This document shows positions 5,708 through 5,963 of a stretch of 9,628 nt of DNA, piece by piece (the stretch's first letter is position 1; every line of letters starts with the position of its first letter). Source of the stretch: a bacterium (GTDB lineage: Bacteria > SZUA-79 > Acidulodesulfobacterales > Acidulodesulfobacteraceae); contig JAJYZM010000020.1 in the NCBI GenBank assembly GCA_021799935.1, positions 1-9,628 on the forward strand, in the 5' to 3' direction. The notes under the pieces are model-generated. The model saw only the letters and a program-made list of their open reading frames with translations, did no database searches and had not been told where the DNA came from. The position numbers and the translations under genes were made by a program.

Positions 5708-5760
5708 TTGTTTAACCTCCAAATAAATTGTTTTTATTAGTTTCATTAAATTAATAATAC

Positions 5761-5823
5761 AAAAACAAAAAACGCCGTAACTAAGTAGGGATTAAGATTA
5801 TTAAATCCCTCTAATTACGGCGT
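5761..5823 (-). terminator. Intrinsic terminator / attenuator hairpin in the nifH leader
   Basis: The outer stem pairs ACGCCGTAA (5772-5780) with TTACGGCGT (5815-5823). An inner stem pairs AGGGATT (5787-5793) with AATCCCT (5804-5810), separated by an asymmetric internal loop. On the minus strand the outer stem is followed at once by TTTTTTGTTTTTG (ending about 5761), a full U-tract; there is none on the plus side. It therefore terminates RNA moving toward nifH, 64 nt before the nifH start. It lies downstream of the only recognisable nifH promoter. Regulated read-through is inferred. Confidence 0.8.
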
Positions 5824-5963
5824 CATTGCCATATGCGCTCAATTGCGCTTTATATAAAATAAATTTTTTTAAGTTAAGTTAATCTGAATTAATCTAAAAA
5901 CTCCTTAATTATTTAGTTATTTAATTATTTTAATTTATATATTTTATTCATATTAAAAGTTAA

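What the first reader, a model, noticed from the sequence alone, without database searches (positions are those of the whole stretch)
5708..5953. Strong intrinsic terminator inside the sigma-54-driven nifH leader
The only recognisable nifH promoter would start RNA near 5953, and that RNA must cross a GC-rich hairpin with a full U-tract (5823-5761) before reaching nifH. No other gene could feed this terminator, since nifV runs the other way. Either the nif operon is controlled by attenuation, with an unknown ligand, protein or antisense RNA relieving it, or the promoter makes a separate small RNA of about 190 nt that ends here and nifH is read by leakage. Sigma-54 control followed by a leader terminator would add a second switch to nitrogenase expression.
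Basis: partly seen in the sequence, partly recalled or inferred. Interest (0 to 1): 0.75.

Follow-up and report, generated by a model that had tools for sequence, protein, structure and literature searches.

The report
Protein-relieved stop before nitrogenase genes
The RNA made ahead of the nitrogenase genes in this bacterium carries a stop signal that looks built to be opened by an RNA-binding protein whose gene, in close relatives, sits further down the same gene cluster, which would give nitrogen fixation a second on/off switch after its promoter.

Summary
In detail: a sigma-54 box (5979-5964, minus strand) precedes a ~246-nt nifH leader that holds a strong intrinsic terminator (5824-5761). 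The best reading is neither a riboswitch of unknown ligand nor a separate small RNA. Just upstream, and sharing the terminator's 5' arm, lie two abutting six-base-loop hairpins (P1 5850-5833, P2 5832-5817), the arrangement bound by ANTAR antitermination proteins. Motif and terminator occur in 16 of 22 nifH leaders of this lineage (kin of SZUA-79), with covariation showing P2 and terminator as alternative folds. In relatives the nif operon carries the genome's only detected ANTAR protein, a receiver-ANTAR response regulator, between nifX and nifI1. Ten operons have leader motif and ANTAR gene on one contig, six have neither, none is discordant. The ANTAR gene has its own sigma-54 box, without attenuator and mostly placed for a leaderless mRNA, so one sigma-54 signal would make both the attenuated nifH RNA and the protein that releases it: a feed-forward loop. 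ANTAR control of nif genes is already predicted (Pelobacter) and, as I recall, studied (Geobacter). New here: U instead of G at loop position 4 of P1, almost no linker, and the circuit. Nothing was tested at the bench.

The parts
5964..5979 (-). sigma-54 box TGGCATAAAAATTGCT of the nifH operon, predicted RNA start 5953
   Evidence: only strict match in the window; a box in 22 of 22 nifH leaders examined
5833..5850 (-). P1, first hexaloop hairpin AAGCGC[AATTGA]GCGCAT; loop position 4 is U, not G
5817..5832 (-). P2, second hexaloop hairpin ATGGC[AATGAC]GCCGT; its 3' arm is part of the terminator's 5' arm (antiterminator)
5771..5824 (-). intrinsic terminator hairpin
5761..5772 (-). U-tract of the terminator, TTTTTTGTTTTT
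5716..5720 (-). GGAGG, likely ribosome-binding site of nifH
   Evidence: sequence
4847..5707 (-). nifH, first gene of the attenuated operon (nifB-like, methyltransferase, ferredoxin, nifD and nifK follow in the window)

Best explanation
The nifH leader is an ANTAR-type attenuator. By default the arm 5824-5804 pairs with 5793-5771 and RNA polymerase stops near 5761, after about 193 nt. When an active receiver-ANTAR response regulator is present it binds P1 and P2, P2 keeps the shared GCCGU out of the terminator, and polymerase runs on into the nif genes. In relatives this regulator is encoded in the same operon between nifX and nifI1 and has its own internal sigma-54 box without an attenuator, so one sigma-54 activator would drive both arms of a coherent feed-forward loop, with read-through adding positive feedback. 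Shown from sequence: box, terminator, the mutually exclusive P2, their covariation, co-occurrence with the ANTAR gene, the internal box. Inferred: protein binding, termination and its relief in the cell, transcription starts, the signal to the receiver domain, and the presence of the ANTAR gene in the window's own genome (the window ends inside nifK; a relative 93% identical over 4.3 kb has the gene).
For: Leaders: 16 of 22 (window plus 21 genomes) carry P1, P2 and terminator. P1+P2 on 16 rows (14 distinct): 96.1% of cells paired, 4 pairs and 12 cells changed on both sides, 0 of 500 shuffles reach either; slid controls 28-52% paired. P1+terminator: 96.3% paired, 6 pairs changed on both sides (1 of 500 shuffles as high), 16 such cells (0 of 500). 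Shared column 33 (G in 11, A in 5) fits both its P2 partner and its terminator partner in 16 of 16 and changed at least 4 times on the tree. Receiver-ANTAR protein: PF00072 and PF03861 above cut-off, best solved relative EutV, E 1.6e-26; exactly one PF03861 match in 16 of 21 genomes. Order nifX-ANTAR-nifI1-nifI2 in 14 genomes plus one stray contig. Leader motif and ANTAR gene on one contig in 10 operons, neither in 6, no discordant operon. Sigma-54 box between nifX and nifI1 in 14 of 15 ANTAR-bearing intervals and 0 of 6 ANTAR-less ones.
Against: P1's loop has U at position 4 in 16 of 16, where known ANTAR loops have G. P1 and P2 are 0-2 nt apart; a 3-nt linker already impaired E. faecalis eutP (PMC3369931). 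The fold of P1-P2 alone in the window is not exceptional (z -1.8, 13 of 200 shuffles as good). The count of further pair types is not above shuffles (176 of 500, 54 of 500). The co-occurrence rests on one loss or gain event on the tree. No kinase of the HisKA_2 type was found in 21 genomes, so the input is unknown. The 16 rows are related and shuffle counts are not probabilities.
Confidence: 0.84

Rival explanations
1. The promoter makes a separate regulatory RNA of about 190 nt ending at the hairpin, and nifH is read by leakage. A variant: the terminated leader also sequesters the ANTAR protein through P1.
For: The terminated product would exist in any case; the terminator is strong.
Against: Start-to-U-tract length varies from 133 to 232 nt and the 5' part is alike only among close relatives, by eye. 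The conserved part is the antiterminator itself, which would be pointless if read-through were mere leakage.
Confidence: 0.06
2. A small-molecule riboswitch, tRNA or antisense RNA relieves the terminator.
For: The signal is unknown and P1 departs from the ANTAR loop rule.
Against: No Rfam match at gathering score; the conserved block upstream of the terminator is 34 nt, small for an aptamer; it occurs in the nif operons that also carry an ANTAR gene and not in the six without.
Confidence: 0.05
3. The hairpin does not terminate; it protects the 5' end of processed nifH mRNA or slows polymerase.
For: Stable hairpins near 5' ends can stabilise mRNA (general knowledge, not from a call).
Against: A U-tract of at least 4 T follows the hairpin in 16 of 16 leaders, and P2 keeps a competing pairing with the shared segment; protection needs neither.
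Confidence: 0.05

Closest known systems
EutV/eutP antitermination of Enterococcus faecalis (PMC3369931: passages and section 10 read; PMC8934654: passages read)
   Same: Receiver-ANTAR response regulator; two short hairpins with six-base loops; P2 overlaps the 5' arm of an intrinsic terminator; closest solved protein.
   Different: There A1 and G4 occur in both loops and linkers are 5-12 nt; here P1 has U4 and the linker is 0-2 nt. The residue matching EutV Tyr164 (stacks on G4) is His or Leu here (numbering matched by me). No HisKA_2 kinase was found; that EutW is of that type is recalled.
ANTAR substrates ahead of nitrogenase genes in Pelobacter carbinolicus and nitrogen genes in Desulfotomaculum acetoxidans (PMC3369931, section 10)
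   Same: Predicted dual-hexaloop attenuators at nitrogenase or other nitrogen genes.
   Different: Those are multi-operon regulons found with a model that kept A1/G4 in each loop; here one strong target per genome was found and P1 lacks G4. No sequence of theirs was compared here.
GnfK/GnfR of Geobacter sulfurreducens (Ueki and Lovley 2010; not held; seen only as a cited title in PMC8164766 and as gene names in PMC7962754 and PMC11934962; its antiterminator role is recalled)
   Same: As recalled: sigma-54 cascade plus an ANTAR response regulator acting on nif leaders.
   Different: Orthology not tested; here the regulator gene lies inside the nif operon it would control, after nifX.
NasR/nasF and AmiR/amiE attenuators (PMC3369931, PMC7496416: passages read)
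   Same: Same RNA logic; a C:G pair closes each loop, as in both hairpins here.
   Different: NasR and AmiR sense by other domains or partners (passages in PMC3369931); targets are nitrate and amide genes.

Membership tests
ANTAR-target RNA (dual hexaloop attenuator) | Two tandem hairpins with six-base loops | tested here: met
   16 of 22 leaders; 96.1% of cells paired
ANTAR-target RNA (dual hexaloop attenuator) | A1 and G4 in the P2 loop | tested here: met
   G4 in 16 of 16; position 1 is A in 11 and G in 5, so A1 is relaxed; the window has A1 and G4
ANTAR-target RNA (dual hexaloop attenuator) | A1 and G4 in the P1 loop | tested here: not met
   position 4 is U in 16 of 16; position 1 is A in 14
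ANTAR-target RNA (dual hexaloop attenuator) | C:G pair closing each loop | tested here: met
   invariant in both hairpins; rule from PMC7496416
ANTAR-target RNA (dual hexaloop attenuator) | P2 overlaps the 5' arm of an intrinsic terminator | tested here: met
   shared columns 33-34: terminator pairs hold in 16 of 16 at both, P2 pairs in 16 and 14 of 16
ANTAR-target RNA (dual hexaloop attenuator) | Linker of suitable length (5-12 nt in eut; 2-25 nt used for Actinobacteria) | tested here: not met
   0 nt if P1 has 6 pairs, 2 nt where only 4 form, as in the window; limits
ANTAR-target RNA (dual hexaloop attenuator) | Genome encodes an ANTAR protein | tested here: inconclusive
   yes in 13 of 15 relatives with the motif; G009 and G016 have none assembled; the window's genome is not held
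ANTAR-target RNA (dual hexaloop attenuator) | Binding by the ANTAR protein and relief of termination | not testable with these tools
   needs purified protein and transcription assays
ANTAR response regulator (EutV/NasT-like protein) | Receiver plus ANTAR domains | tested here: met
   PF00072 82.3 bits and PF03861 62.1 bits in P0001
GnfR-type nif regulator of Geobacter | Orthology of regulator and of target RNA | not tested
   no Geobacter sequence or founding paper at hand

The most novel reading that the evidence does not exclude
Nitrogenase in this lineage is run by a closed one-protein, one-RNA feed-forward loop: a sigma-54 signal makes an unattenuated, mostly leaderless mRNA for an ANTAR protein and, 9-10 kb upstream, the nifH leader RNA that this protein carries past its terminator. 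The protein reads an asymmetric pair of loops (U4 in P1, G4 in P2), with its G4-stacking residue altered, so ANTAR recognition is broader than the A1/G4 rule.
Probability: 0.42. Interest if true: 0.65.

Novelty: new variant of a known kind. Interest (0 to 1): 0.52.

Why it matters
It turns a bare hairpin into a testable circuit: nitrogenase RNA starts at a sigma-54 promoter but would be finished only if a second, co-induced RNA-binding protein is active. That gives a fast post-initiation check on one of the cell's costliest enzymes, encoded beside the P-II-like nifI genes. The conserved U4/G4 loop pair suggests that searches demanding A1/G4 in both loops miss ANTAR targets.

Tried and rejected
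Rfam: nothing at gathering score in the window. Chance hairpin: rejected. A scan demanding A1/G4 in both loops, stems of at least 4 pairs and a terminator finds 0 of 22 leaders and 0 of 71 distant ones; with any hexaloop it finds only 6 of 22, so that scan was also too strict in other ways. Wider regulon: the P1-P2 model at E up to 1 in 9 genomes gives one strong hit in each of 6, always the nifH leader; every other hit has E 0.0087 or worse. In 21 more genomes at E up to 0.01 it finds 9 nifH leaders and one weak hit (G022, E 0.0012) inside a frame that I read by eye as mnmG. Only 150 of 162-435 first-look candidates per genome were scored, so weak targets may be missed. The P2 12-mer alone is not enriched over its reversed control in 17 genomes. 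HisKA_2 partner: 0 of 21 genomes. NifA-type TGT-N10-ACA or N11 sites within 5701-6300: none. Conserved mini-ORF: ATGAAATAA in two leaders, other short ORFs elsewhere, not general. Distant nifH loci (71 of the 80 searched, L010-L080): six have a match to a profile built from receiver-ANTAR proteins; over the ANTAR part in L016, L019 and L037, over the receiver only in L078, L075 and L045. L016 (Clostridiales) has a receiver-ANTAR gene upstream of nifH and, by eye, a GGC[AAAGGC]GCC hairpin before a terminator; the P1-P2 model does not find that leader. Small RNA, riboswitch and protective hairpin: see rivals.

Full report
What is there. On the minus strand the window reads: sigma-54 box 5979-5964 (predicted start 5953), a leader of about 246 nt, nifH from 5707. 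The terminator (5824-5761) is strong by fold (z -7.1) and conserved. nifV is divergent and cannot feed it.

Directly upstream of the terminator, sharing its 5' arm, are two abutting hairpins with six-base loops: P1 AAGCGC[AAUUGA]GCGCAU (5850-5833; its outer pairs are imperfect here, so 4 pairs form) and P2 AUGGC[AAUGAC]GCCGU (5832-5817). P2's GCCGU is also part of the terminator stem, so P2 and terminator exclude each other. This is the arrangement described for ANTAR proteins in PMC3369931 (passages and section 10 read) and PMC8934654 (passages).

Relatives. NifH against one genome per species gave nine close loci, L001-L009; L005 is the SZUA-79 assembly. The window matches L001 (G001) at 93.0% over 4334 bp and 87.9% over 1284 bp; its own genome is not held. 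The phylum of G005 holds 30 genomes. With the window, 22 nifH leaders were examined. All 22 have a sigma-54 box. Sixteen have P1, P2 and terminator (window, G002-G005, G008, G009, G015, G016, G018-G021, G024, G026, G029). Six have none of these (G006, G007, G010, G011, G013, G014).

Covariation. P1+P2: 16 rows, 14 distinct, 96.1% of cells paired, 4 pairs and 12 cells changed on both sides; 0 of 500 shuffles reach either, slid controls pair 28-52%; the number of further pair types is not unusual (176 of 500). P1+terminator: 96.3% paired, 6 pairs (1 of 500) and 16 cells (0 of 500) changed on both sides; further pair types 54 of 500. At shared column 33 the base is G in 11 and A in 5 leaders; its P2 partner and its terminator partner both suit it in 16 of 16, with at least four changes on the tree. 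At column 34 the terminator pair holds in 16 and the P2 pair in 14 of 16. The rows are related and some tree nodes are weak (support down to 45), so these counts are not probabilities.

The protein. P0001, 201 residues from G001, has receiver and ANTAR domains; its best solved relative is EutV. Among the 120 listed of 341 database hits, 38 have 66% identity or more over 85% or more of the query; the other long ones fall to 42% or less. PF03861 finds exactly one ANTAR domain in each of 16 of 21 genomes and in 6 of an overlapping 9; 8 of the 30 genomes (G012, G016, G017, G023, G025, G027, G028, G030) were searched only with P0001, which found receiver-type matches at most. The order nifX-ANTAR-nifI1-nifI2 is seen in 14 genomes, in part in G002, and on one stray contig of G014.

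Linkage. Leader motif and ANTAR gene lie on one contig, 9-10 kb apart, in G002 (partial gene), G005, G008, G015, G018, G019, G020, G021, G026 and G029: 10 operons. In G003, G004 and G024 they are on different contigs of one bin. In G006, G007, G010, G011, G013 and G014 an intact operon has neither, nifX and nifI1 being 59-242 nt apart. Incomplete: G009 and G016 (leader, no ANTAR gene assembled), G001 and G022 (ANTAR gene, no leader assembled). The odd case is G014: its nif operon lacks both, but its bin holds a 3.1-kb contig with nifX-ANTAR-nifI1-nifI2, which I read as contamination. On the nif protein tree G008, which has both, is sister to the clade lacking both (support 91), so the two parts were probably lost together, once: linkage, but a single event.

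The circuit. A sigma-54 box lies before the ANTAR gene in 14 of 15 copies; G022 has it with one mismatch. The box ends exactly 12 nt before the ATG in 10 of 15, which predicts a 2-nt untranslated region with no room for a Shine-Dalgarno site; the rest have 17 nt (G004, G029), 62 nt (G008), about 71 nt (G015) or 11 nt after the imperfect box (G022). No box lies between nifX and nifI1 in the six ANTAR-less operons. So the protein need not wait for read-through of the terminator it would control. This is inferred from boxes, not mapped starts.

How it departs from textbook ANTAR targets. P1's loop is R-A-N-U-R-N, with U4 in 16 of 16; P2's is R-A-N-G-R-C, with G4 in 16 of 16. In eutP, changing A1 or G4 of either loop cut induction. 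The residue matching EutV Tyr164, reported to stack on G4, is His in 33 and Leu in 5 of 38 subfamily members read by eye against Phe in 77 and His in 3 of 80 others. So I say 'works like an ANTAR attenuator' with confidence, but 'canonical member' only in part: two tested features (G4 in P1, linker length) are not met.

Known context. PMC3369931 predicts ANTAR substrates at nitrogenase genes in Pelobacter carbinolicus and at nitrogen genes in Desulfotomaculum acetoxidans. GnfR of Geobacter was seen only as a cited title and gene name; its role is recalled. PMC6776010 (passages) reports nifDKH expression in four Ca. Acidulodesulfobacterales bins; that the window belongs to that order is likely but was not tested. 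Eight paper searches listed nothing that I recognised as this leader or circuit; most subscription papers are not held.

Verdict. Observation confirmed, interpretation refined: a new variant of a known kind of control, with an unusual first loop and a feed-forward design, unproved at the bench.

Noticed in passing
window 6150-6178 (+) and relatives: Divergent nifV has its own sigma-54 box (6150-6165) that predicts an RNA start 2 nt before the ATG at 6178. In 14 of 18 sequences examined (window plus 17 genomes) the predicted start is 1-4 nt before a nifV ATG; G002 has 8 nt, G005 no box by this pattern, the ANTAR-less G006 and G007 142 and 266 nt. Conserved leaderless sigma-54 mRNAs would be unusual.
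   Followed up: partly
L087-L089, L091, L103-L117, L182 (relatives): Internal sigma-54 box just before the ANTAR gene, 12 nt from box end to ATG in 10 of 15: a second predicted leaderless sigma-54 mRNA.
   Followed up: partly
window 6061-6080: Perfect inverted repeat TTTAATCA-N4-TGATTAAA between the two divergent sigma-54 promoters, a possible activator site; similar AT-rich repeats are seen by eye in some relatives. No TGT-N10-ACA site.
   Followed up: no
window 5953-5850 (-) and relatives: A GGAG(T) sequence, sometimes followed by a start-stop ORF such as ATGAAATAA, recurs in several leaders upstream of P1.
   Followed up: no
window 3200-3976 (-): A SAM-dependent methyltransferase-like gene sits inside the nif operon between the nifB-like and ferredoxin genes, also in relatives; role unknown.
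   Followed up: no
window 3949-4884 (-); L089 17085-17960: The nifB-like protein is short (292 aa in G001) and matches only positions 7-284 of the 441-position NifB model, just under its cut-off (338.8 against 343.65 bits).
   Followed up: no
window 8227-9486 (-), with repeats near 8009-8030 and 9608-9628: A transposase-like ORF of 419 aa flanked by inverted copies of a CCCAAATC..GATTTGGG-like sequence, seen by eye: probably an insertion sequence at the window's end.
   Followed up: no
G014 contigs C104 and C145 (L176, L177): This public bin holds two nif operon types, one without and one with the ANTAR gene; probably a mixed bin.
   Followed up: partly
L016 around 3468-5001: A clostridial nifH locus with a receiver-ANTAR gene upstream and, by eye, ANTAR-like hairpins before terminators in the nifH leader.
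   Followed up: partly
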